From Candidatus Eisenbacteria bacterium (GTDB lineage: Bacteria > Orphanbacterota > Orphanbacteria > Orphanbacterales > Orphanbacteraceae), in contig JAFGGD010000034.1 of NCBI GenBank assembly GCA_016930695.1, positions 1 through 64,000 of the forward strand: a DNA stretch of 64,000 nt, written 5' to 3'. The position numbers and the translations under genes are program-made. Below the pieces are notes generated by a model. That model ran no database searches. It was given only the letters and a program-made list of their open reading frames with translations, and was not told the origin of the DNA. This document shows positions 37,496 to 51,159 of this stretch, piece by piece (position 1 is the first letter of the stretch; every line of letters starts with the position of its first letter).

Positions 37496-40400
37496 TCAGT
37501 CCGCCCCTTCTTCCAATTCCCGGCGAGCCGTTTCCGGGTATTCGTCCGCGCTCCCCGGCGCCATCCCCTCGCGGAGCCGGGGGGACTTGAGCGCTCGGAC
37601 CATCTCTCCGCGGAGCTTTTCCGCCCTCTCCCGGGCGTTGGGGGTGAGCGTCTCCCGTTCCAAGAGGAAACCGAGCAGTCGGGCCGCGCGGTCCGGGTCG
37701 CCCGCGCCGAAGCGGACCCGGGCGATCTCGCCGAGCGTCTCGAGAACGGTGGGCTCGTCCATGTCCTCCAAGGCGGGGCGGAGCGCCGCCCGGTACCGGC
37801 GGAGCGCCCCGCCCCAATCTCCGTCCTCGGCGGCGATCCTGCCGGCGGCGAGATCCAGCCAGGCGCTCCGGTAGCCGCGCACGCTCCCGATGTCCAGCGG
37901 GGGGTTTCTCTCGTTGGAACGGAGTTCCTCTCCCCGGTCCACGATCTGGCCGAGCAGGAAACGGGCCTCCTGCAGGTCCCCGGAGGCGAAGGCGTTGTCG
38001 GCGAGCACCGCGTAGAGAAGATTCACCCAGGAAAGATCCCCCAATGATTGAGCGAAGTCGACCGCGGATTCCAGCTCTTCTCGGGCTCGGTCCCAGCGAC
38101 CCATGTCGTAGGCGATCATCCCGAGGCGGGTCTGGGAGAAGGCGACGCGCCAGTCGTGCCCCATTTCCCGGGAGAGTCGAATGCACTCCTCGAAAAGGCG
38201 GAAGGTCTCGTCGAAGTTTCCCGTGCGCCGCGCCAGCGTCCCGATCCTCTCCAGGATGTTGACGCACCCGTCCAGGTCCTCCCCCATCTCCCGGCGGATT
38301 CGGACGCTTTCCCAGTATCGTTTTTTCGCCACGCGGGGCAGGTCCTGCTGTTCGGCGATTCTCCCGAGAAGAACGTGGGAGAGGGCGATCCCCCAACGAT
38401 CCCCCATCTGATGCCGTAGCCGGAGGCATTTCTGCCCGCACCGGAGCGCCTCGTCGTGATCCGTGTGGGTGAGGATGCTGCTGATCACCTCCAGGGTCAT
38501 GGCTTCCCAGAAACGGTTCCCTTCTCTTTCGAAGATGGCGAGGGCTTCCTCGAGCCGGACTTTCTCCTTTTCGGCGTAATCCATGAAGAGGATCGCCGAC
38601 ACGACCAGGGCGAAGGCGTACTCCGGTGTCGGACCGAGCGGCTCCAACGTCTTCAGGCCGCGGCGGATCAGTTCCTCGCAGAGGCCGACCCGCTCGTATC
38701 GCACGAACCAGGCGCGCCCGGTGTAGAGCGCGCCGAGGAGGAGGCCGGCGTCCTCTTCGTCGCGTTTTTCGAGGAGGCGGATCGCTTCGTCGAAGAAGTC
38801 CGCCCCTTCCGGAAAACGGCTCCGGATATCGAAGTAGAGGAACAGGGTGAAGAACGCCCCTCTCATCGATTCGATCCGGCCCATTTCCGACGCCCGGATC
38901 CATGCGGTTCGTATGTTCTCGATTTCCCGGGCGATCTCCATCAGGGCTTCCTTCTGCCCCCCACCCTCGATCGCCTTTTCCAGCCGCGCCATTTTCTTCA
39001 GGTAGTAATCGACCAGCTTGCCGACGACCTCGTCGTGCTCCTCCTGGTTTTCCCGGAGCTTCTCCTCCGCGAATTGGCGGAGGACCTCGTGAATCTCGTA
39101 GCGCCCGGAGGGATCCGCATGGAGCAGGGATTTGTCCCCCAGGATCTCCAGCACGCCGATGGGGCAACCCGCCGTCTCTCTCGCCGCCTCGCGAGTGAAC
39201 CCTCCCCGGAAGGAAGCGAGGCGGCGGAAACAGGTCCTCTCCTTCTCGGACAGCATCTTCCAGGAATGATCGAAAACCGCCCGGATGCTCCTGTGTCGCT
39301 CGGGAATGTTTCTCTGGCGGCTGGTGAGAAAGTCGAGGCTCTTCTCGATCTCGGCGTCGATCTCGTCGCACCGGAACATCTTGGTCCACGCCGCGGCGAG
39401 TTCGATACCGAGGGGTCCCCCGCGAAGGCGCCTGCAGATACGGCCGATCGCATCCCGGTTGTCTTCTTCGGGGGTGAAGGAAACATCCGCCCTCTTCGCG
39501 GCGTTCAGAAAGAGCCGCACCGCCGGGGAGGAATCGTACTCCTCCCGATCCGCCCCCTCCTCGGGATAGGGGAGTCCATCCAGTTCGAGGACGTACTCTC
39601 CGCCCATGCGGAGCCTTTCCCGGGAGGTGGCGATCACCTGAACATCCGGCGCTTCCTCGAGAATCTCCCGGACGTCGTCCAGGGCTCCGAGGAGATGCTC
39701 CATGTTGTCCAGGACGAGGAGCATTCTCTTTTCCCGCAGGTAATCCGCCAGGAGGCGCCTCTCCGAAACGCCGGCCCGGCGACCGGCCGCTCCCTTTTCC
39801 CCCTTGCCGCGGGGGAGGGGGACGCGGAGGGTCTCCACGATCGTCGGGATCAGGTTTTTCGGGGATACGACCGAGGCGAGGGGGACGAAAAAGATGCCGT
39901 CCGGATAAGCGCCCAACTGCTCTTCCGCCGCCTGGATCGCCAGGCGGGTTTTTCCGCTCCCCCCCGGACCGACCAGGGTGAGCAGCCGCCAGTCCGGGTC
40001 CCCGAGAAGGCGCCTGATCTCCCCCATTTCTTCCTCACGGCCGATGAAACGCGTCTCCCGGGCGGGCAGGTTGTGCCGGGACCTTTCCACCTCGGGGGCC
40101 CGCGCGATTCTCGCGAGGCCGGCCGAGAGGATCCGGTTTCGGAGTTCGGTGGTTTCCTCGGCGGGGGTCAGCCCCAGCTCCTTCTCCAGCAGGCGGGCGC
40201 TCTGATCGTAGAGTTCGATGGCGGAGGTTCGTTGCCCCGCTTCGGTGTAGAGGTCCATCATCTCCCGCTGCGCCGGTTCGTGGAAGGGATCCAGAGAAAG
40301 CCAACGCCGGCCGTAGAGAATCGCCTTGTCGAACTCGTGTCGGGTTCTGTGGTACCGGACGAGTCGATCGAGCACCGACGCAAACTCGGCCCGCGCCGTC

Positions 40401-40873
40401 TCCTTCTCGTGGAGCTGCCATTCGTCGAAGGAGTAGCTGTCCTTCAGGCCGAAGCCGGCCATGAAGTGATCCCTGTAGAGAGAGGCGGCCCCGGCGAGGA
40501 GGTCGGCGTCGCGGGGAGGTATGTCGAAACCGCGTCCGTCGGTCCCCCGGCCGGCGCGGGAGCGCTCCCGGAACTCGATCACGTCGGTCCACACGCCCTC
40601 GCGCGCCAGTTCCACCGTGTCGTACTCCGCCGACAACTCGATCGGCGCGACCTCCTGTTTCAGGATCCAGAGGAGGTTTCTGAGATTGGCGTGGCTGCGC
40701 GCCGGGTCCGCTTCCGGCCAAAGAAGGGTGGAGAGCGCCTCCCGGCTGTGGCTCCGGCCGGTGACGGCGAGATAGGCGAGAAGCGCGAGCGCTTTCCGGC
40801 GCCGGATGGGGATCAAACGATCTCCGCGACGGATCAGCGGTGTTCCGAGGAGGTGGATCTTCAGAGGTATCAA
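37496..40873 (-). CDS. SARP-like regulator: OmpR-type DNA-binding, BTAD, NB-ARC ATPase and TPRs
   Basis: This 1125-residue cytoplasmic regulator resembles AfsR/MalT-type STAND proteins. The N-terminal winged helix (about 1-90, with RRRKALALLAYLAV and LSTLLWPEADPARSHANLRNLLW) is followed by a bacterial transcriptional activation domain (about 125-250, SLYRDHFMAGF... LYDQSARLLEKELGL). The STAND ATPase begins TRFIGREEEM with Walker A GPGGSGKT (302-309) and Walker B MLLVLDNMEHLL. From about 650 to 1110 TPR-like helical repeats (CGQKCLRLRHQMGDRWGIALSHVLLGRIAEQQ and similar) form the sensor part. The TTG at 40873 has GGAG 6 nt upstream. Target genes and ligand are unknown. Confidence 0.85.
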   Translation of the reverse strand: MIPLKIHLLGTPLIRRGDRLIPIRRRKALALLAYLAVTGRSHSREALSTLLWPEADPARSHANLRNLLWILKQEVAPIELSAEYDTVELAREGVWTDVIEFRERSRAGRGTDGRGFDIPPRDADLLAGAASLYRDHFMAGFGLKDSYSFDEWQLHEKETARAEFASVLDRLVRYHRTRHEFDKAILYGRRWLSLDPFHEPAQREMMDLYTEAGQRTSAIELYDQSARLLEKELGLTPAEETTELRNRILSAGLARIARAPEVERSRHNLPARETRFIGREEEMGEIRRLLGDPDWRLLTLVGPGGSGKTRLAIQAAEEQLGAYPDGIFFVPLASVVSPKNLIPTIVETLRVPLPRGKGEKGAAGRRAGVSERRLLADYLREKRMLLVLDNMEHLLGALDDVREILEEAPDVQVIATSRERLRMGGEYVLELDGLPYPEEGADREEYDSSPAVRLFLNAAKRADVSFTPEEDNRDAIGRICRRLRGGPLGIELAAAWTKMFRCDEIDAEIEKSLDFLTSRQRNIPERHRSIRAVFDHSWKMLSEKERTCFRRLASFRGGFTREAARETAGCPIGVLEILGDKSLLHADPSGRYEIHEVLRQFAEEKLRENQEEHDEVVGKLVDYYLKKMARLEKAIEGGGQKEALMEIAREIENIRTAWIRASEMGRIESMRGAFFTLFLYFDIRSRFPEGADFFDEAIRLLEKRDEEDAGLLLGALYTGRAWFVRYERVGLCEELIRRGLKTLEPLGPTPEYAFALVVSAILFMDYAEKEKVRLEEALAIFEREGNRFWEAMTLEVISSILTHTDHDEALRCGQKCLRLRHQMGDRWGIALSHVLLGRIAEQQDLPRVAKKRYWESVRIRREMGEDLDGCVNILERIGTLARRTGNFDETFRLFEECIRLSREMGHDWRVAFSQTRLGMIAYDMGRWDRAREELESAVDFAQSLGDLSWVNLLYAVLADNAFASGDLQEARFLLGQIVDRGEELRSNERNPPLDIGSVRGYRSAWLDLAAGRIAAEDGDWGGALRRYRAALRPALEDMDEPTVLETLGEIARVRFGAGDPDRAARLLGFLLERETLTPNARERAEKLRGEMVRALKSPRLREGMAPGSADEYPETARRELEEGAD

Positions 40874-40990: not shown

Positions 40991-41030
40991 GCACGTCTCG
41001 CCCCTTCCCGGGGGCGTGGGGAGGGGAAGA

Positions 41031-42098
41031 ATGCGGTCCGATACCATACGCGTCTTTCCGGCCGAGGAGGCGATTCGGCCGGTCCCCGGCGGAGCGCCGT
41101 CCGGTGGGGTCCGTTCCCGGCCGTCCTTCCGGCGCGTCGCCGTCGTCGGGACGCTCGGTTTCTCCCTTCTCTTCTGGGCGGCCGATTTCGTCTACCGGAC
41201 GGTGGAGGATATCTCCTTCGTGAACCGGGAGGAGTGCGTGCTCATCCGCGCCCTCCCGCCGATCGGCGACCTCCTCTGGGAGTACTTCGTGGAGACGCTG
41301 ATTCTGGTCCTCGTCGGCGCCTTTTTCGCCGTTCTTCTCGGCCGCTGGTTCCTTCGTTTCCGGCGCTTCTACCCCCGCGGTCCGGCGACCGCCTTTCTCT
41401 GCGGATCCGTTCTGCCGGTCTGCGCCTGTTCGGCGATCCCTCTTCTTTCGAGCATGAAGGGGAGGTGGCGTTTCGGGACCGCCCTCTCCTTCGTCCTCGC
41501 CGCCCCTCTTCTCAGCCCCTATATTCTGGTCCTTTCCTTCACCGTTCTCGGTCCGGTCTACGGCGCGCTCCGCGTCGCCGGCGCTTTTTTGACGGTGATG
41601 GGGAGCACGGCCTTCCTGAGCGCTCTCGTCCGGCGGAACCGCTCTTTCGGAGCGGAGTGGGTCCGGGGCTCCTGCGACCGCTCCTGCGCCGCCGCCGGGG
41701 GGGACGTGGTCGAAGAGACGTGGGCCCTCTTCCGCCGCATGATCCCCTACCTTTTGGCCGCCGGTGTGCTCGGTCTCGCACTCGAGTCGCTCGGCCCGCG
41801 GCGGTTCCTCCTGCTGCGGAGCCTTTCGGAGGGCCCTTGGGGAGTGCTCGCCTGGATCGGGGTCGGCATTCCTCTCTATTTCTGCGGCGGCTCGGAGGTC
41901 CTCTTCCTCCGGCCCCTCATGGAGCACGGCTTCCCGGTCGGGACGGCGGTCGCCTTCAGCCTGACCGCGACGGCGATCTGCTCTTCGTCGATCGCCATGC
42001 TGATTCAGGCGATCGGCGCCCGCCTGACCGCCGCGCTCGTCATCTCGGTTCTCACGATCGCGACCGCGCTCGCCCTCGTCCTGAACGCGCTTTTCTGA
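41031..42098 (+). CDS. UPF0718/ArsP-like permease
   Basis: This 355-residue inner-membrane protein has about eight TM helices in two repeats. The family hallmark GSVLPVCACSAIPL occurs in the first half and GIPLYFCGGSEVLFL plus ATAICSSSIAMLIQA in the second. Relatives (YraQ, ArsP, SO_0444-type) export organoarsenicals, copper or zinc. A central cytoplasmic loop contains SCDRSCAAAGG, a Cys-x3-Cys pair that could bind metal. The ATG at 41031 is preceded by GGGGAAGA. No metalloregulator is adjacent; the gene stands between the SARP-like regulator and the propeller modules. Confidence 0.78.
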   Translation: MRSDTIRVFPAEEAIRPVPGGAPSGGVRSRPSFRRVAVVGTLGFSLLFWAADFVYRTVEDISFVNREECVLIRALPPIGDLLWEYFVETLILVLVGAFFAVLLGRWFLRFRRFYPRGPATAFLCGSVLPVCACSAIPLLSSMKGRWRFGTALSFVLAAPLLSPYILVLSFTVLGPVYGALRVAGAFLTVMGSTAFLSALVRRNRSFGAEWVRGSCDRSCAAAGGDVVEETWALFRRMIPYLLAAGVLGLALESLGPRRFLLLRSLSEGPWGVLAWIGVGIPLYFCGGSEVLFLRPLMEHGFPVGTAVAFSLTATAICSSSIAMLIQAIGARLTAALVISVLTIATALALVLNALF

Positions 42099-42647: not shown

Positions 42648-43304
42648 ATGCGCAAAGCGAACAACGCGCTGGTCATCGCCGCGCTCTTCACCCTCCTGCT
42701 CGTGACCGCCTCCGCCTCGGTCGCCGGCGCGGAGGGTGAGGCCGGCGCCCGGTCCGGGGAGGTGAGCGTGCTGGCCATGATGTGCACCCCCTACGGACTC
42801 AACTACAACCTGATCCAGGACGTGATGGACCTGTACGGGTGGAACGTCACCACCATCGCCGTGTCCGACACGGTCAATCCGTGCGCCGACGGAAGCCCGA
42901 TCGTCGTGGACACCCTGGTGACCGAGGTGGACGACCTCTCCGCCTGGGACTGTCTCTTCATCATGCCCGCCCGCGCCTACACCGGAACCTCTCACGCCGA
43001 CCTGTTGGCGAGCCCGGAGGCGCTCGATCTGGTCGCGCGCGCGGACTCGATGGAGATGGTCATCGGCACGGTTTGCGGGGGCGTCCGCGTCCTCGCCGCG
43101 GCGGACATCCTGAGCGGCGTGACCGTCACCGGCCATCTGGACTACAAGCAGGAGTATCTCGACGCGGGCGCGATCTGGGCGGGCGACGTGGTCCCGCCGG
43201 TGGTGGACGGACGCATCCTCACCACCCGGCGCGGGCAGTATTACCGCACGCAGATCTGCGAAGCCCTCCGCCGGATGATCGACGACAACCGCGCCGCCCG
43301 ATAG
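42648..43304 (+). CDS. Exported DJ-1/PfpI-fold protein, module 1
   Basis: This 218-residue protein has a signal peptide (about 1-28, LVIAALFTLLLVTASASVAGAEG) and a DJ-1/PfpI core. The nucleophile-elbow Cys143 lies in GTVCGGVRVLAAADIL. In PfpI peptidases the residue after this Cys is His; here it is Gly, so classical PfpI proteolysis is doubtful. The strand-1 MMCTPYG segment carries a second conserved Cys46, and IIMPAR-like FIMPARAYTG matches the fold's Glu/Arg strand without the usual Glu. RBS is GGAAGGAAGG. The propeller gene starts 38 bp downstream. A paralogue with the same features is at 45294. Function is unknown. Confidence 0.8.
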   Translation: MRKANNALVIAALFTLLLVTASASVAGAEGEAGARSGEVSVLAMMCTPYGLNYNLIQDVMDLYGWNVTTIAVSDTVNPCADGSPIVVDTLVTEVDDLSAWDCLFIMPARAYTGTSHADLLASPEALDLVARADSMEMVIGTVCGGVRVLAAADILSGVTVTGHLDYKQEYLDAGAIWAGDVVPPVVDGRILTTRRGQYYRTQICEALRRMIDDNRAAR

Positions 43305-43342
43305 GCGCGGGCGGCTCGAACGAAAGGAACGGGAGAAGGATC

Positions 43343-44809
43343 ATGAAGAGAACGTTCATCATCGGATTCCTGATCGCCGCCGCCTTCGGTTCGGCCGGGG
43401 CCCAGCTGGACTCGGTCTGGACGCGTCCCTTCGGCGGCCCGGGGAACGACGGTTTCCGCTCGGTGGTCGCCACGAGCGACGGCGCGATTCTGGCGGTCGG
43501 TTACACCTACTCCTTCGGCGCCGCGGACGTGAACGTCTACGCGGTGAAGGCGGACGCGAACGGCGACACGATTTGGACGCGCGCCTACGGAGGAGCGGGA
43601 CGGGACTACGGGTACGGCGTCTGTGAAACCGCCGACGGCGGATACGTCATCACCGGCTACACGACCACCGCCTCCGCCGGTTATGAGGACCTTTATCTGA
43701 TCAAGATCGACGCGGACGGCGACACGCTCTGGACACGCTCGTACGGAGGCGCCGGCACCGACGAGGGGCGGGCGGTCTCCGCCACCTCCGACGGCTACAT
43801 CCTGGCCGCCGGGACGACGGAGAGCTACGGGGCGGGGCTCGGCGATATCTGGCTCCTCAAGCTGGACGCCGCGGGCGACACCGTCTGGACGCGCACCTAC
43901 GGAGGCGTGGAGCACGACTGGGCCCTCGGGATCTGCGAGACCGGCGCCGGGATCTACGGCCTCTCCGCCACGACCGGTTCGACGAGCGACAACCGGGACA
44001 TCGAAGTGCTCCGCGTCGATCCGAGCGGCGCCCTCCTCTCGGACAACTGGTACGGGAACACCGCCGCCATCTCTCCCGACTGGGGGGGAGGGATCTGCGC
44101 CACCCAAGACAGCGGCCTGGCGGTAGGCGGTTTCCGTTCCCAGGAGGGGAACGTGGGAGACGCCTGCGTTCTCGTTCTCTACGGCGACGGGAGCCAGCGC
44201 TTTTTCCGCACCTACAGCAAGAACTTCTACCAGTACGCATGCGACGTGTTGCAGACCTGGGACAACGCATTCCTCACATGCGGAGCCGACAAGGACCCGA
44301 CCACCATGTCGAACGATCTCTACCTGCTCGCGCGCAAGGCGGGCGCGGGTTGGGTCGTCGACCAGACCATCGGCGGCCCGGGGAACGAGTGGGGGAGCGC
44401 CATCGACGAGATCGCTCCCGGGCATTATGTGGTCGCCGGGCACACGAATTCCTACGGCGCCGGCGGCTTCGACGGCTGGCTCGTTCGCTTGAAGGATCCG
44501 GCCACCTCCGTCGGCGGAGTGGAGGACTTGGACCGCCGCGTCTTCTTCTCCCCGCCGCGCCCGAACCCGGCGCGCGCATCCCTCGCCTTCCGGATGAATC
44601 TGTCCTCTTCCGGATCGGTGAACCTACGCGTGATCGATGTCTCGGGACGTCACGTGCGGACGCTCCACAGAGGCGACGTCGGCCCGGGCGCCCATGACTT
44701 CCGTTGGGACACGCGGGACGACCGGGGCCGCGAGGTGGCGTCCGGCGTCTATTTCATCGTGGCGGACGGATCGGTTACCGGGATGAGGCGGGCGGTGGTG
44801 ATCCGCTAA
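43343..44809 (+). CDS. Exported seven-repeat propeller protein with FlgD-Ig-like C-terminus, module 1
   Basis: This 488-residue protein has a signal peptide (MKRTFIIGFLIAAAFGSAGA). Seven repeats of about 53 residues (about 21-398) follow the pattern YGG..D.G....T.DGGY...G.T.S.G..D.Y..K.D..GDT.WTR. A linker leads to PPRPNPARASLAF, then a FlgD-Ig-like sandwich (about 410-488) with NLRVIDVSGRHVRTL, WDTRDDRGREVASGVYF and the terminal RRAVVIR. Such C-terminal modules act as secretion/attachment signals in type IX-like systems, but no such system is seen here. The repeats degrade toward the end (repeats 5-6). The protein is exactly as long as its paralogue at 46001. A strong terminator follows. Confidence 0.85.
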   Translation: MKRTFIIGFLIAAAFGSAGAQLDSVWTRPFGGPGNDGFRSVVATSDGAILAVGYTYSFGAADVNVYAVKADANGDTIWTRAYGGAGRDYGYGVCETADGGYVITGYTTTASAGYEDLYLIKIDADGDTLWTRSYGGAGTDEGRAVSATSDGYILAAGTTESYGAGLGDIWLLKLDAAGDTVWTRTYGGVEHDWALGICETGAGIYGLSATTGSTSDNRDIEVLRVDPSGALLSDNWYGNTAAISPDWGGGICATQDSGLAVGGFRSQEGNVGDACVLVLYGDGSQRFFRTYSKNFYQYACDVLQTWDNAFLTCGADKDPTTMSNDLYLLARKAGAGWVVDQTIGGPGNEWGSAIDEIAPGHYVVAGHTNSYGAGGFDGWLVRLKDPATSVGGVEDLDRRVFFSPPRPNPARASLAFRMNLSSSGSVNLRVIDVSGRHVRTLHRGDVGPGAHDFRWDTRDDRGREVASGVYFIVADGSVTGMRRAVVIR

Positions 44810-44896
44810 CCCCGGCGCGCGTCCCCCAAGCGCCCCGCGCGGACCGCCGGAAGACGGCCCGCGCTCCCCCACGGGGCGCCTCGCCCTCCTTCACCC

Positions 44897-44933
44897 GGGC
44901 GGTCCGTCCCCACGCGGACGGACCGCCCTTTTT
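44897..44933 (+). terminator. Strong rho-independent terminator
   Basis: The 13-bp perfect stem GGGCGGTCCGTCC (44897-44909) / GGACGGACCGCCC (44916-44928) is followed by five T residues. It closes propeller module 1. Confidence 0.95.
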
Positions 44934-45112
44934 CATCTCCTTTAATACGCCGGGATCGCGATCCGGAGGGGGGATTTCCCCTTTCGATCACGCGACGGCT
45001 CTCGTCCCGTTCGAAATCACCGGCCCGCGATCCGGCCGATCCGTCGCGCCCTCCCCTCCAACGACGCCACGACTCCGCCGCACGGAGAAGAGACGCCTCC
45101 GGAGACGCTCGG

Positions 45113-45161
45113 GTGACGGCCCAAGAGACGATCGCCGGACGGCCCCCGCTCATAATCATTC
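45113..45161 (+). promoter_or_regulatory. Shared promoter-like motif (copy 3)
   Basis: GGGTGACGGCCCAAGAGACG, then GACGGCCCCCGCTCATAATC. The first part aligns with the motif at 42391 and the second (GACGGCCCCC followed by TAAT) with that at 40945. Position relative to the DJ-1 gene of module 2 is about 135 bp upstream. Confidence 0.4.
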
Positions 45162-45293
45162 TTGAAGAGTGAGATCCCGAGCCGTGGTCCGACACCGGCG
45201 GGCCGGAAAAGGAAGAGTCCACGCTCCGAAATGGTCCGCGCCGGACGGCCCGCGAGGGTCCGGCGCGAGAGAAGAAAGGAAGGAAAGAGGGCT

Positions 45294-45962
45294 ATGAAGA
45301 GAATCATCCTCGTTCTGATCTCCTTGGCGGCGGTTCTCGCCGCCGCTACGGGCATTCCGTCCGTTCCGGCGGCCGAAACCGGCGCCGGAGGGGGGGGGCG
45401 ATCGGGTGAGGTGCGCGTCCTGGCGCTCCTCTGCGCTCCCTTCGGCACCAACACGAACCTGATGAGGGATTGGATGGAACTTTACGGGTGGACCGTCACC
45501 ACCACCGGCGTGGTCGATTCGGTCGCCCGCTGCGCCTACGGAGGCCCATACGTGGTGGACACCCTGGTCTCCGAGATCGACGACGTCACGGCTTGGGACA
45601 TCCTCTTCATCATGCCCTCCCGCGCATGGACCGGCAATTCCCACGCGCAGCTGCTGGCGGACCAGGACGCGCTCGATCTGGTCGCGGCGGCGGCGGCGGC
45701 GGACCTGGTGGTCGCCTCCATGTGCGGCGGGACCCGCGTGCTCGCCGCGGCGGACGTGATCGACGGGAGGCAAGTGACCGGGCGGCCCGAATACCTCGCG
45801 GAGTACGAGGCCGCCGGCGCCACCTACGTCACCTACCCGGTTCCGCCCGTTCAGGACGGAAACATCATCACATCAAGGGATGGCCAGTATTACGGGAGGA
45901 GGATCTGCGAGGTCGCGCGGGCGACGCTGGACAGTCTGCGCGCCGCCAAAGCGGGCGACTGA
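45294..45962 (+). CDS. Exported DJ-1/PfpI-fold protein, module 2
   Basis: This 222-residue paralogue of the protein at 42648 has a signal peptide (LVLISLAAVLAAATGIPSVPAAE), a Gly-rich linker, then the DJ-1 core. Cys144 sits in ASMCGGTRVLAAADVI, again followed by Gly rather than His. LLCAPFG (Cys47), ELYGWTVTT, VVDTLVSEIDDVTAWDILFIMPSRAWTGNSHAQLL and GQYY.R.ICE are shared with module 1. The ATG at 45294 follows GGAAAGAGG. The gap to the propeller gene is 38 bp, the same as in module 1. Confidence 0.8.
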   Translation: MKRIILVLISLAAVLAAATGIPSVPAAETGAGGGGRSGEVRVLALLCAPFGTNTNLMRDWMELYGWTVTTTGVVDSVARCAYGGPYVVDTLVSEIDDVTAWDILFIMPSRAWTGNSHAQLLADQDALDLVAAAAAADLVVASMCGGTRVLAAADVIDGRQVTGRPEYLAEYEAAGATYVTYPVPPVQDGNIITSRDGQYYGRRICEVARATLDSLRAAKAGD

Positions 45963-46000
45963 TCACGGACAGGCGGCGGTTTTTCATAAGGAGATGAACC

Positions 46001-47467
46001 ATGCGACGCATACTCGGAATCGGGCTGTTCTCTCTCGCCTTTGCCGGCGCGGCGGCGGCCCAACTGGATTCGATTTGGGCGCGCACCTACGGCGGCCCCT
46101 CCAACGACGGTTTTCGGTCCGTCGCCGTCACCGCCGACGGCGGTTTCCTGGCGGTCGGGTACACCTACTCCTTCGGCGCCGGGAACACGGACCTCTACGC
46201 GGTGCGCGCCGACGGAAACGGGGACACGCTCTGGACAAGGACCTACGGCGGTGCGGGACGGGATTACGGGTGGGGCTGCGCTCCGACCGCGGACGGCGGT
46301 TTCGCCATCGCCGGCTACACCACCTCGCGCGGGTCGGGGAAGGAGGACCTCTGGCTGGTCCGTATCGATTCCGGCGGCGACACGCTCTGGACGCGCGCTT
46401 ACGGCGGCCCCCGAGACGACGAGGGACGCGCGATTCTGGAGACGCCCGAGGGGGATCTGATGGTGGTGGGTTGGACCGATGTGGGGGCGAATGAACTCGA
46501 CCTCTGGATTCTCCGAACCGAAAGCGACGGCGATACCCTTTGGACCCGGCGATACGGCGGGACCGGCGTCGACGTCGGCTACGCGATCGCGCGGACCGCG
46601 GACGGTTTTTACGCGGCGGTCGGTTGGGACGGCGAGGACGGGGGATACCAGCAGGCGCTTCTCGTCAAAGTGGACGACGACGGTTACGAGGTTTGCTCGG
46701 AAATCTACGGAAACGATCACCCGGTGAACTACGAATGGGCGATGGATGTCTGCGCGCTGGAGGACAGCGGCGTCGTCATGAGCGTTACACGCGGCGTTGA
46801 GGGGAGCGACCCCGCCGACGCCGGATATGTCCAGACCTTCGGCGACTGTTCCCAGAGGCGCTACCGGGCCAACACCGGAGTCTATTACGAGTACGGGAAC
46901 GGGATTCTGCGGAAGTGGGACGGCGCGTTTCTGGTCGCCGGGGCGAGCAAGAGAGAGAACGACCACACCAACGATCTCTTTCTCGCGGAGCGGTCCGGCG
47001 GGGCCGGCTGGATCTACAACCAAGCCATCGGCGGCGCCGGCACGGACTGGGCGCAGGCCCTGGAGAGGATCTCTCCCGGCCGCTATGTCCTCGCGGGCCA
47101 CACGAACTCGGAGGGGGCGGGCGGTTTCGACGCCTGGCTGGTTCTCGTTCAGGAACAGAGCGTTTCCGTCGAGGCCGGGGAGCCTGCGGCCCGGTCCGCC
47201 CTCCTCTCGGCGCCGCGGCCGAACCCGGCCCGTTCCTCCCTCGCCTTCTCGATCCACATGGCCCGGTCGGGATCGGTCGACCTCCGCGTTCTGAACGTGG
47301 CGGGCAAGGTGGTCCGCAGATTGCATGGAGGCGATCTCCCTCCGGGGACGCACACCTTCGAGTGGGACACCCGGAACGACCGGGGAAGGCCGGTCTCCAG
47401 CGGTGTCTACTTCCTCGCCGCCGAAGGGGCGGTCCACGGGATGAGAAAGGCGATCGTGCTGCGCTGA
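46001..47467 (+). CDS. Exported seven-repeat propeller protein with FlgD-Ig-like C-terminus, module 2
   Basis: This 488-residue paralogue of the protein at 43343 has a signal peptide (ILGIGLFSLAFAGAAAA) followed by seven repeats of the same type, e.g. TLWTRTYGGAGRDYGWGCAPTADGGF and WDGEDGGYQQALLVKVDDDGYE. The C-terminal module starts PRPNPARSSLAFSI and ends VYFLAAEGAVHGMRKAIVLR. Repeats 1-4 and the Ig-like end are most conserved between copies; repeats 5-6 differ most. The ATG at 46001 follows AAGGAG. A surface-exposed or secreted role is inferred from the signal peptide and sorting-type end; the ligand is unknown. Confidence 0.85.
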   Translation: MRRILGIGLFSLAFAGAAAAQLDSIWARTYGGPSNDGFRSVAVTADGGFLAVGYTYSFGAGNTDLYAVRADGNGDTLWTRTYGGAGRDYGWGCAPTADGGFAIAGYTTSRGSGKEDLWLVRIDSGGDTLWTRAYGGPRDDEGRAILETPEGDLMVVGWTDVGANELDLWILRTESDGDTLWTRRYGGTGVDVGYAIARTADGFYAAVGWDGEDGGYQQALLVKVDDDGYEVCSEIYGNDHPVNYEWAMDVCALEDSGVVMSVTRGVEGSDPADAGYVQTFGDCSQRRYRANTGVYYEYGNGILRKWDGAFLVAGASKRENDHTNDLFLAERSGGAGWIYNQAIGGAGTDWAQALERISPGRYVLAGHTNSEGAGGFDAWLVLVQEQSVSVEAGEPAARSALLSAPRPNPARSSLAFSIHMARSGSVDLRVLNVAGKVVRRLHGGDLPPGTHTFEWDTRNDRGRPVSSGVYFLAAEGAVHGMRKAIVLR

Positions 47468-47505: not shown

Positions 47506-47561
47506 GGAGACCCGGCGTTCCACGGACCACCTCCAGAAACGCGCCGGGTCTCCTCCTTTTT
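47506..47561 (+). terminator. Rho-independent terminator
   Basis: The 12-bp stem GGAGACCCGGCG (47506-47517) / CGCCGGGTCTCC (47542-47553) with a 24-nt loop is followed by TCCTTTTT. It closes propeller module 2. Confidence 0.85.
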
Positions 47562-49047: not shown

Positions 49048-49656
49048 ATGGAACCGAAGACGGAGCGGACCGACGAAGAGTTGGTGAGGCGCTGTCTCGC
49101 CGGGGACCGGGACAGTTTCGCCTTTTTGGTGGACCGTCACAAGGATCGCGTCTTCTGGTTGGTCCGCCGAACCGCCGGGAATGAGGAGGCGGAAGATCTG
49201 ACGCAGGAGACCTTTCTTCGCGCGTATCGGGCTCTTCCCCGGTTCCGCGGCGAAAGCCTCTTCGGGACCTGGCTCTACACGATCGCCCGGAACATCGCCC
49301 TCTCCCACTTAAGGAAGCGATCGGGGAGGGGGGAAGCGATCAGCTTCGAGGAGGAAGGGGAGGAGAAGATCCACCTGCTGGCGGAAGGGACGATCCGGCC
49401 GGAAGAGGCGTTCGAGGAGAAGGATCTGGCGGATCGGGTGAGGGCGCTGGTGGAACGGTTGCCGGAACCGTACCGCACCGTGATCACCCTCTATCATCTC
49501 CATCAGCTGCGCTATGAGGAGATCGCCGCCGTCATGGATCTGCCCCTCGGCACGGTGAAGACGAACCTGCACCGGGCGAGAAAGCGCCTCCGGGACCTGG
49601 TTCTGCTGGAGACCGGTCTCCGGAGCGCCGCGGAAGGAAAAGGGGGAATCGAGTGA
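49048..49656 (+). CDS. ECF-type RNA polymerase sigma factor
   Basis: This 202-residue sigma factor has region 2 (about 10-80: ELVRRCLAGDRDSFAFLVDRHKDRVFWLVRR, then EAEDLTQETFLRAYRALPRFRGESLFGTWLYTIARN) and region 4 (about 130-185: LPEPYRTVITLYHLHQLRYEEIAAVMDLPLGTVKTNLHRARKRLR). The TQETFLRAY -10-recognition helix and LGTVKTNLHRA HTH are canonical. No region 1 or 3 is present. The next gene, overlapping by 4 bp (GTGA), encodes its probable anti-sigma factor. A membrane-stress type of control is inferred. Confidence 0.93.
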   Translation: MEPKTERTDEELVRRCLAGDRDSFAFLVDRHKDRVFWLVRRTAGNEEAEDLTQETFLRAYRALPRFRGESLFGTWLYTIARNIALSHLRKRSGRGEAISFEEEGEEKIHLLAEGTIRPEEAFEEKDLADRVRALVERLPEPYRTVITLYHLHQLRYEEIAAVMDLPLGTVKTNLHRARKRLRDLVLLETGLRSAAEGKGGIE

Positions 49657-50213
49657 AAAACGATTCATGCGCCCTCTCGATCGACCGGATCGCACGGATG
49701 CTCGGCGGTTTCCTTCCGGAGACGGAGCGGACGGAGCTGGAAAACCATCTGCGGGACTGTTCCCGTTGCCGCGCCGAACTCGCCCTCCAAAGGGCGATCG
49801 GGGATGCGCTCGCCGAGAAGCCCGCCGCCGTTCTCCCGGCCGATTTCACGGAGCGTGTCATGGGGCGGCTGGAGCATTTTCCCACGCGCCTGCGTCCCCG
49901 GCTCCGTCCCGTCCTTCTGCGGGGCGCGGCGGTGGCCGTTCTCGTCGCGGCCTCACTCGCGCCTCTCCTCTCCGGTGGTCGGGGTGGGGGCGTCGGGCTC
50001 TCCGGGGTGGTGGAGAGGGTGGGCTCGGTTTTCGCCGTTCTTGCCGCTCCCCTCGAATGGTCTCTTCGCGGCATCGCTTCCCTGGCGGAGCCGGCCATGG
50101 AAGCGGCGGCCCGGATGATTCCTCTCGGGCCGATTCCACTCCTCGCCCTCCTCCTCGTCGGGGCGAGCGGCGTCTGGGGTCTCCGGGCTTTCCACGACTA
50201 CCTGCGGGAATAG
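49653..50213 (+). CDS. Zinc-finger anti-sigma factor (membrane-anchored)
   Basis: This 186-residue protein has a putative zinc-binding ENHLRDCSRCRAEL motif (His-x3-Cys-x2-Cys, about residues 31-38), the hallmark of ZAS-domain anti-sigma factors. One clear TM lies near 88-105 (LLRGAAVAVLVAASLAPLL) and a second near 155-175 (PIPLLALLLVGASGVWGL). The GTG start overlaps the sigma factor stop. It should hold the sigma factor at the membrane until a signal arrives. The periplasmic sensor portion is short and has no known domain. Confidence 0.85.
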   Translation: MKNDSCALSIDRIARMLGGFLPETERTELENHLRDCSRCRAELALQRAIGDALAEKPAAVLPADFTERVMGRLEHFPTRLRPRLRPVLLRGAAVAVLVAASLAPLLSGGRGGGVGLSGVVERVGSVFAVLAAPLEWSLRGIASLAEPAMEAAARMIPLGPIPLLALLLVGASGVWGLRAFHDYLRE

Positions 50214-50313: not shown

Positions 50314-51159
50314 TTAGTGGAAGATCACGTTACCCGAACCGTGGACGTTGCTCCGCACCTTCCCCTTCCCCCGGCAGTGCAGATTTCCCGATCCGTGAAT
50401 CTCCGCCTCGATCGCCGTGTCGGCCTGGATCGAGGCGTCCCCGGAGCCGTGGATCGACACGTCCGCCCGGTCGCTCTTCATGCCCGAGGCGGAGTAGTCC
50501 CCGGAGCCGTGGATCGAAACGGTCTGCTCGATCGTTTCGCCTCCGCCGATCTTGACGTCTCCCGAGCCGTCGATCCGGACCCGCAGTTCCCGCGTTTCCG
50601 TTCGGGCGACCCGGATGTCGCCGGATCCGGAAATCCGCGCGCTGAGGTTCTCTACACGGAGATCGCCGAGGGCGATGTCCCCCGAGCCGTGCGTTTCGAT
50701 CCGCACGTCCTTGGCGCGCAGATCCTCCCCCTCGAGATCGCCGGAGCCGTGGATCTCGATCCGGAAGTCTCCCGTCTCTATGTCGCCGAGCAATACGTCG
50801 CCCGAGGCGGACAGTTGAATCCGATCCAGGTTTTTCACGGTGAGTTCGTATCGGATCGGCTTGCCGGGGTCGAGGTTCACCCGGTCCTTCCGTCCGATGC
50901 TCAGGTGGCCGTCTTCGTTCTCGATCTCCAGGTACTCGAAAATGTTTTCCTGGGCCCGCACGCGCAGTCCTTCCCGGTCCCCCTGTTCGATGACGAGGGT
51001 TCCGACGGCGGCGAGCGTCACTTCCCGGGCGCCGGCGGCGTCGAACTCCCGATCCACCAACGGCCCCTCGCCTCGGATCTTCTCGTGTCCGAAGGGTCCC
51101 CAACCGGCGGTGCAGAACAGGAACGCCGCCGCCGTACCGATGAAAAGAGCTTTTCGCAT
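50314..51159 (-). CDS. Exported head-GIN-domain (DUF2807) protein
   Basis: This 281-residue protein has a signal peptide (MRKALFIGTAAAFLFCTAGWG) and a right-handed beta-helix-like GIN domain. After an EFDAAGAREVTLAAVGTLVIEQGD head, the turn motif [HSD]GSGD/N recurs every 18-21 residues (IHGSGDLEGEDL, THGSGDIALGDL, ISGSGDIRVARTE, IDGSGDVKIGG, IHGSGDYSASG, IHGSGDASIQAD, IHGSGNLHCRG, VHGSGNVIFH). This makes a regular coil-per-repeat stack. Such proteins are described as putative auto-transporter adhesins but are exported by Sec here. The gene converges on the ECF sigma/anti-sigma pair and could be in its regulon. Confidence 0.85.
   Translation of the reverse strand: MRKALFIGTAAAFLFCTAGWGPFGHEKIRGEGPLVDREFDAAGAREVTLAAVGTLVIEQGDREGLRVRAQENIFEYLEIENEDGHLSIGRKDRVNLDPGKPIRYELTVKNLDRIQLSASGDVLLGDIETGDFRIEIHGSGDLEGEDLRAKDVRIETHGSGDIALGDLRVENLSARISGSGDIRVARTETRELRVRIDGSGDVKIGGGETIEQTVSIHGSGDYSASGMKSDRADVSIHGSGDASIQADTAIEAEIHGSGNLHCRGKGKVRSNVHGSGNVIFH

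What the first reader, a model, noticed from the sequence alone, without database searches (positions are those of the whole stretch)
42648..47467. Duplicated two-gene module: exported DJ-1/PfpI protein plus 488-residue propeller protein with sorting-type C-terminus
Two consecutive modules share gene order, a 38-bp intergenic gap, identical propeller length (488 residues), strong terminators and related upstream motifs. Both DJ-1 proteins keep the elbow Cys (C143/C144) and a second conserved Cys (C46/C47), but have Gly instead of His after the elbow Cys. The coupling of an exported cysteine-bearing DJ-1-fold protein with a seven-repeat propeller cargo is not one I recognise as a described system. 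The exported enzyme could modify, mature or protect its propeller partner, or both could act on one extracellular substrate. The pairing is seen in sequence; the function is inference.
Basis: partly seen in the sequence, partly recalled or inferred. Interest (0 to 1): 0.78.

Follow-up and report, generated by a model that had tools for sequence, protein, structure and literature searches.

The report
Exported DJ-1–propeller partner proteins
Two neighbouring gene pairs each encode an exported relative of the DJ-1 protein next to a seven-bladed propeller protein, and in many unrelated microbes the same two parts are joined in one protein, so they almost certainly work as one unit outside the cell, although what they act on is unknown.

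Summary
Two tandem pairs (DJ-1 fold with a signal-peptide-like N-terminus, then a 488-aa propeller, 38-bp gaps) lie at 42648-47467. The DJ-1s belong to a distinct family lacking the usual catalytic Glu and His but with two Cys (C79, C143) invariant in 29/29 aligned members. I found 33 members by DJ-1 searches. Of 23 exported bacterial-type members (one is a Thermoplasmatales archaeon), 22 are followed by the same seven-bladed propeller: 16 fused (two with a frame break), 6 as the next gene. The 23rd, in this genome, is fused to an FG-GAP propeller. Conversely, in 18 genomes all 21 full-length hits to the propeller profile are DJ-1-linked; generic propellers match only in pieces. AlphaFold2 places both domains of a native fusion confidently (pTM 0.90). 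The propeller's nearest solved relative is CylK's, whose active site lies at a two-domain interface. Best reading: a composite cell-surface protein binding or converting an extracellular ligand at the DJ-1/propeller junction. Partnership is well supported; chemistry is inferred. I found no description in open literature. New variant of known folds.

The parts
42648..43304 (+). DJ-1 A: exported DJ-1/PfpI-fold protein, 218 aa, signal-peptide-like N-terminus, invariant C79 and C143, no sorting tail
43343..44809 (+). Propeller A: 488 aa, signal-peptide-like N-terminus, seven-bladed propeller of the DJ-1-linked family, C-terminal FlgD_ig/Por-type tail
44561..44761 (+). Sorting-type tail of propeller A (one of 107 in the genome; 22.4 bits, just under the curated cut-off of 23)
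44897..44928 (+). Terminator-like 13-bp stem followed by a T-run, between the two modules
45294..45962 (+). DJ-1 B: paralogue of DJ-1 A, 222 aa, signal-peptide-like N-terminus, invariant C80 and C144, no sorting tail
46001..47467 (+). Propeller B: paralogue of propeller A, 488 aa, same architecture
47506..47553 (+). Terminator-like 12-bp stem (24-nt loop) followed by TCCTTTTT, after module B
41016..42098 (+). ArsP_1-type permease (PF03773) just upstream, same strand; a homologue (42% identical) lies next to the split module of a Zixibacterium (L081). Possible third member, weak evidence

Best explanation
Each pair encodes one two-part extracellular protein. The DJ-1 protein caps the seven-bladed propeller, permanently and probably rigidly, and the pair binds or converts an extracellular ligand at the junction, where the DJ-1 nucleophile-elbow cysteine (C143) and its family-specific partner cysteine (C79) would supply covalent or redox chemistry. 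In this organism the two parts are separate genes; in many other phyla they are one chain (signal peptide, DJ-1, propeller, often PKD and LamG, sorting tail). Because only the propeller carries the sorting tail, DJ-1 would have to bind it in the periplasm and be carried out with it. Shown: the family, the fusions, the adjacency, reciprocal exclusivity in the genomes searched, the invariant cysteines, the tail, and an SprA-type translocon gene. Predicted: the rigid two-domain arrangement. Inferred: the site at the junction, the chemistry and the piggyback export.
For: Fusions in the same order in Gemmatimonadota bin29 (4 copies), Fermentibacteria, CSSED10-310, Bacteroidota, Eisenbacteria, Zixibacteria, Chloroflexi and a Thermoplasmatales archaeon. 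Split pairs elsewhere in G318 (13-bp gap), Zixibacteria, Cloacimonadota and bacterium Bin_338. All 21 full-length propeller hits in 18 genomes are DJ-1-linked. A propeller profile built without the window scores propellers A and B full length at 339 and 318 bits, inside the leave-one-out range of true members (281-517); generic propellers give fragments of at most 228 bits. The [FY]Y[DEQ]Y[GA] loop in blade 6 is in both window propellers and 12 others, in none of 26 generic ORFs. AF2 of a native fusion: pLDDT 88, pTM 0.90 over 579 residues, of which DJ-1 is about 32%; an unplaced DJ-1 should hold pTM near 0.65-0.7 (that expectation is my estimate). C79 and C143 29/29; C79 in 1 of 38 generic PfpI. 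C79 is kept in relatives without an evident signal peptide (L103, L104, L107), which argues for function rather than only a structural disulfide. CylK's active site lies between the same kind of propeller and its N-terminal domain (PMC8916777). All 5 complete split modules: DJ-1 without tail, propeller with tail. SprA_N hit in this genome; T9SS moves folded proteins (PMC9251779).
Against: No model coordinates were available, so the C79-C143 distance and the DJ-1 face touching the propeller were not measured. The usual DJ-1/PfpI Glu and His are missing, so catalysis may be lost. The window DJ-1 pair falls outside the main fused clade (95/91) and its placement is weak (75/38), so its pairing could be older than, or independent of, the fused one. 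Deep tree agreement is not resolved. Asgard archaeal members have an Ig-like stretch and a membrane anchor instead of a propeller. No ligand is known.
Confidence: 0.5

Rival explanations
1. The DJ-1 part is a non-catalytic stability or chaperone cap of the propeller, as the Hsp31-derived C-terminal domain is for large-subunit catalases.
For: A precedent exists for a DJ-1-superfamily domain that gives stability and chaperone activity after fusion (PMC9137513). The activating Glu and the His are lost. Permanent fusion fits a cap.
Against: C143 and C79 stay invariant in 29/29 sequences across phyla, also in relatives without a propeller, which a mere cap would not need.
Confidence: 0.25
2. The whole is a surface adhesin or glycan-binding display protein: PKD and LamG parts bind carbohydrate, the propeller is a spacer or binding face, and DJ-1 is a passive ligand-binding module.
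For: PKD and LamG follow the propeller in Eisenbacteria, Fermentibacteria, Gemmatimonadota and G318; sorting tails or a lipoprotein signal (L101, by eye) place it at the surface.
Against: The window proteins have no LamG or PKD, and many members are DJ-1 plus propeller only; invariant cysteines are not explained.
Confidence: 0.12
3. Thiophilic metalloid or redox handling: the Cys pair binds or senses arsenic, mercury or oxidants outside the cell, together with the ArsP_1 permease.
For: ArsP_1 permease beside the split module in the window and in a Zixibacterium; two invariant Cys. The Glu18 site is mostly Asn here, and E18N raises Cys106 oxidation in human DJ-1 (PMC6089991).
Against: Only two of about 22 loci have the permease; the N52-E18 match is my own alignment, one residue uncertain.
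Confidence: 0.08
4. Secreted PfpI-type protease or deglycase acting on proteins or carbonyl compounds.
For: Foldseek and HMM place DJ-1 A with PfpI and DJ-1d; the nucleophile Cys is kept.
Against: His after the Cys is absent in 28/29, and the Glu column is Gly in all.
Confidence: 0.05

Closest known systems
DJ-1/PfpI superfamily (PfpI PH1704, Arabidopsis DJ-1d, human DJ-1)
   Same: Fold and nucleophile-elbow Cys
   Different: Exported, second invariant Cys (C79), no His after the Cys, Glu column is Gly, obligate propeller partner in bacteria
CylK, Friedel-Crafts alkylase (N-terminal Ca-binding domain plus seven-bladed propeller)
   Same: Nearest solved propeller (HMM E 1.8e-42, Foldseek 7e-22, 23% identity); partner domain on the N-terminal side with the active site at the interface
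   Different: The partner is DJ-1, not the Ca-binding domain that supplies Arg105; no Tyr at the Tyr473-like position of any blade of the window propellers; extracellular, with a sorting tail
DUF5122 / delta-60 repeat propellers
   Same: Repeat type of the blades
   Different: A fixed, colinear seven-blade order with its own blade-6 loop; generic ones match only in pieces
Large-subunit catalases with Hsp31-derived domain
   Same: A DJ-1-superfamily domain fused to another fold
   Different: Catalase partner, different place in the chain (C-terminal), no sorting tail
T9SS cargo with C-terminal sorting domain
   Same: Propeller tails resemble the Por-type tail; SprA gene present
   Different: The DJ-1 partner has no tail of its own

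Membership tests
DJ-1/PfpI superfamily | Fold and sequence profile | tested here: met
   PF01965 above the cut-off; AF2 pLDDT 88; Foldseek 1g2i E 1.4e-12
DJ-1/PfpI superfamily | Cys at the nucleophile elbow | tested here: met
   C143 in 29/29
PfpI protease / deglycase | His after the Cys and conserved Glu near the N-terminus | tested here: not met
   No His in 28/29; Glu column is Gly in 29/29; generic PfpI have His 31/38 and Glu or Gln 31/38
PfpI protease / deglycase | Curated subfamily score | tested here: not met
   TIGR01382 36.3 and 51.6 bits against a cut-off of 139
CylK-type alkylating enzyme | Seven-bladed propeller of the CylK type | tested here: met
   HMM E 1.8e-42; 28 propeller strands in the fused model
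CylK-type alkylating enzyme | Ca-binding N-terminal domain with Arg105, and Tyr473 on the propeller | tested here: not met
   N-terminal partner is DJ-1; Tyr473 mapped by hand on the printed alignment, no Tyr at that position in any blade of A or B
T9SS type A cargo | Signal peptide and C-terminal sorting domain | tested here: inconclusive
   Tail of A at 22.4 bits against a cut-off of 23; FlgD_ig above its cut-off in both; signal peptides judged by eye
T9SS type A cargo | Translocon SprA in the genome | tested here: met
   SprA_N 62.9 bits, C45:6160-7254; other T9SS parts not searched
DJ-1-propeller family (this report) | Two invariant Cys and the colinear propeller next door or in the same chain | tested here: met
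DJ-1-propeller family (this report) | Physical complex of the two parts | not testable with these tools
   Only a predicted fusion model

The most novel reading that the evidence does not exclude
A previously undescribed, widespread class of composite surface enzymes in which a DJ-1 cysteine pair and a CylK-like propeller form one active site outside the cell, and in which the split form exports its tail-less DJ-1 half by riding on the T9SS-tagged propeller.
Probability: 0.25. Interest if true: 0.82.

Novelty: new variant of a known kind. Interest (0 to 1): 0.62.

Why it matters
DJ-1-fold proteins are studied mostly as cytosolic enzymes and redox sensors, and delta-60 type propellers are common surface repeats of unknown use. 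A family that joins the two outside the cell across bacterial phyla and archaea gives both a testable function. The split form also offers a clean test of whether T9SS can carry a protein that has no sorting tail.

Tried and rejected
(1) First genome-contig scan with three sequences found nothing because the patterns were too narrow; the ten-row alignment worked. (2) Tree agreement as proof of co-inheritance: shallow pairs agree, deep signal is absent once close pairs are dropped; not claimed. (3) CylK-type alkylation: rejected on missing residues. (4) PfpI protease or deglycase: disfavoured on missing Glu and His. (5) Conserved third gene: no single neighbour recurs widely; ArsP_1, BTAD/NB-ARC/TPR, LytTR plus kinase and TetR each recur in two or three loci. 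A nine-locus neighbour cluster I take to reflect shared repeat and sorting-tail domains; not checked. (6) C46/C47 as conserved: rejected. (7) Phylum-level surveys for G064 and G318 gave only 1 and 4 genomes. (9) Literature searches for an exported DJ-1/PfpI plus propeller found no description in the open-licence library; subscription papers were not searchable.

Full report
What is there. The four genes are at the stated coordinates with the stated lengths, 38-bp gaps, and terminator-like stems after each pair. The copies are 55% and 50% identical in protein. Pfam and NCBIfam give DJ-1/PfpI for the first genes and DUF5122/delta-60 repeats with a FlgD_ig tail for the second. The tail is ordinary: 107 places in this genome match that family, and an SprA-type translocon gene is present. 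Signal peptides were judged by eye.

The DJ-1 family. Searching 386 genomes with a three-sequence profile gave a sharp gap: a handful of hits at E below 1e-43, then generic PfpI at E above 1e-14. A second scan with ten sequences found 29 true members in named genomes. Counting distinct loci found by DJ-1 searches I get 33: the two window copies, one more in this genome (contig 26), 20 with a propeller in other bacteria or in one Thermoplasmatales archaeon, seven in Asgard archaea, two in Bipolaricaulis and one in a Spirochaete. C143 and C79 are invariant in all 29 aligned. Generic PfpI have C79 in 1 of 38. The Glu column is Gly in all; 28 of 29 lack His after the Cys.

The partnership. Of the 23 exported bacterial-type members, 22 are followed by the same propeller. 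Sixteen are fused (one of them, L106, has a frame break within the DJ-1 part, and one, L090, an in-frame TGA within the propeller, both possibly sequencing errors), and six are split: window A and B, G318, Bin_338, a Zixibacterium and a Cloacimonadota contig that ends inside the propeller. The 23rd, on contig 26 of this genome, is fused to an FG-GAP propeller on its N-terminal side. The Asgard members are DJ-1 plus an Ig-like stretch and a C-terminal membrane anchor, read by eye. The reverse search with the propeller profile in 18 chosen genomes gave 21 full-length hits at E below 1e-80, all DJ-1-linked, including one copy (L131) not found by the DJ-1 scan; all other propellers matched in pieces, and none of those with a fetched locus had a DJ-1 nearby. 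These genomes were mostly chosen because they contain a member, so this is exclusivity within them, not a census.

Window propellers belong to that family. With the window left out of the profile, A and B score 339 and 318 bits over the full length, inside the leave-one-out range of 281-517. They also share the aromatic blade-6 loop (FYQYA and YYEYG), seen in 12 other DJ-1-linked propellers and in none of 26 generic ORFs.

Trees. In the DJ-1 tree the 21 fused or split members other than the window form one side of a branch (95/91), and the window pair (100/98) lies outside, placed weakly (75/38) near propeller-less members. Fused and split states changed at least four times on that tree. In the propeller tree the supported pairs (window A/B, L096/L097, L100/L101, L088/L093) match those of the DJ-1 tree, but distance correlation vanishes without close pairs. 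No relative was found in six same-family genomes, so presence is patchy and the tandem duplication is known from this assembly only.

Structure. AF2 gives DJ-1 A at pLDDT 88 and pTM 0.81, nearest PfpI. A native fusion (L101, DJ-1 plus propeller) gives pLDDT 88.1 and pTM 0.90, with 28 propeller strands. A pTM this high over two domains suggests a confident mutual placement; the value expected without it is my estimate. The nearest solved propeller is that of CylK, whose active site lies between the propeller top face and its N-terminal domain (PMC8916777). CylK's catalytic Tyr is absent at the equivalent place in every blade of A and B, by hand mapping, so this is a precedent for architecture, not for chemistry.

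Mechanism. Shown: pairing, fusion, family identity, invariant cysteines, tail, SprA. Predicted: rigid placement. Inferred: a ligand site at the junction using C143 and C79. A transient maturation role is unlikely because most members stay joined. In all five complete split modules DJ-1 has no tail and the propeller has one; since T9SS passes folded proteins (PMC9251779), carrying DJ-1 out as a passenger is plausible and testable. The main rival is a stability or chaperone cap, as in large catalases (PMC9137513).

Novelty. I found no description of an exported DJ-1/PfpI domain with a propeller in the searchable literature; that library holds open-licence papers only. Both folds are known; the composite, its spread and the two-cysteine family appear new.

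Noticed in passing
L074:4097-6415 (G000 contig 26): Third DJ-1 family member in this genome, fused C-terminally to an FG-GAP propeller; elbow reads WCRG.
   Followed up: partly
window 37496-40873 (-) and L102:8174-11017 (-): BTAD/NB-ARC/TPR regulator near the module in the window and right beside the fused gene in CSSED10-310 (34% identity over 890 aa).
   Followed up: partly
L080, L087, L092, just upstream of the fused gene: LytTR response regulator plus histidine kinase pairs beside the DJ-1-propeller gene in three loci.
   Followed up: partly
L068:751-1452 and L100:4059-4676: TetR-like regulators next to the module; assignment to TetR by eye, similarity between them by tblastn.
   Followed up: partly
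L083, L084, L085, L089, L094, L095, L099: Asgard archaeal members: exported DJ-1 with an Ig-like stretch and a C-terminal membrane anchor, no propeller.
   Followed up: partly
L087: Contig filed under Alphaproteobacteria carries a Por-type tail and a LytTR/kinase pair like those of Bacteroidota loci; possible binning error.
   Followed up: no
L096 and L097: Closely similar DJ-1-propeller-PKD-LamG proteins in MAGs filed under Eisenbacteria and Fermentibacteria; lateral transfer or misassigned bins.
   Followed up: no
window 49048-50213: ECF sigma factor followed by a zinc-finger anti-sigma-like protein, downstream of the module.
   Followed up: no
window 50314-51159 (-): DUF2807/DUF4097 putative adhesin-type protein.
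   Followed up: no
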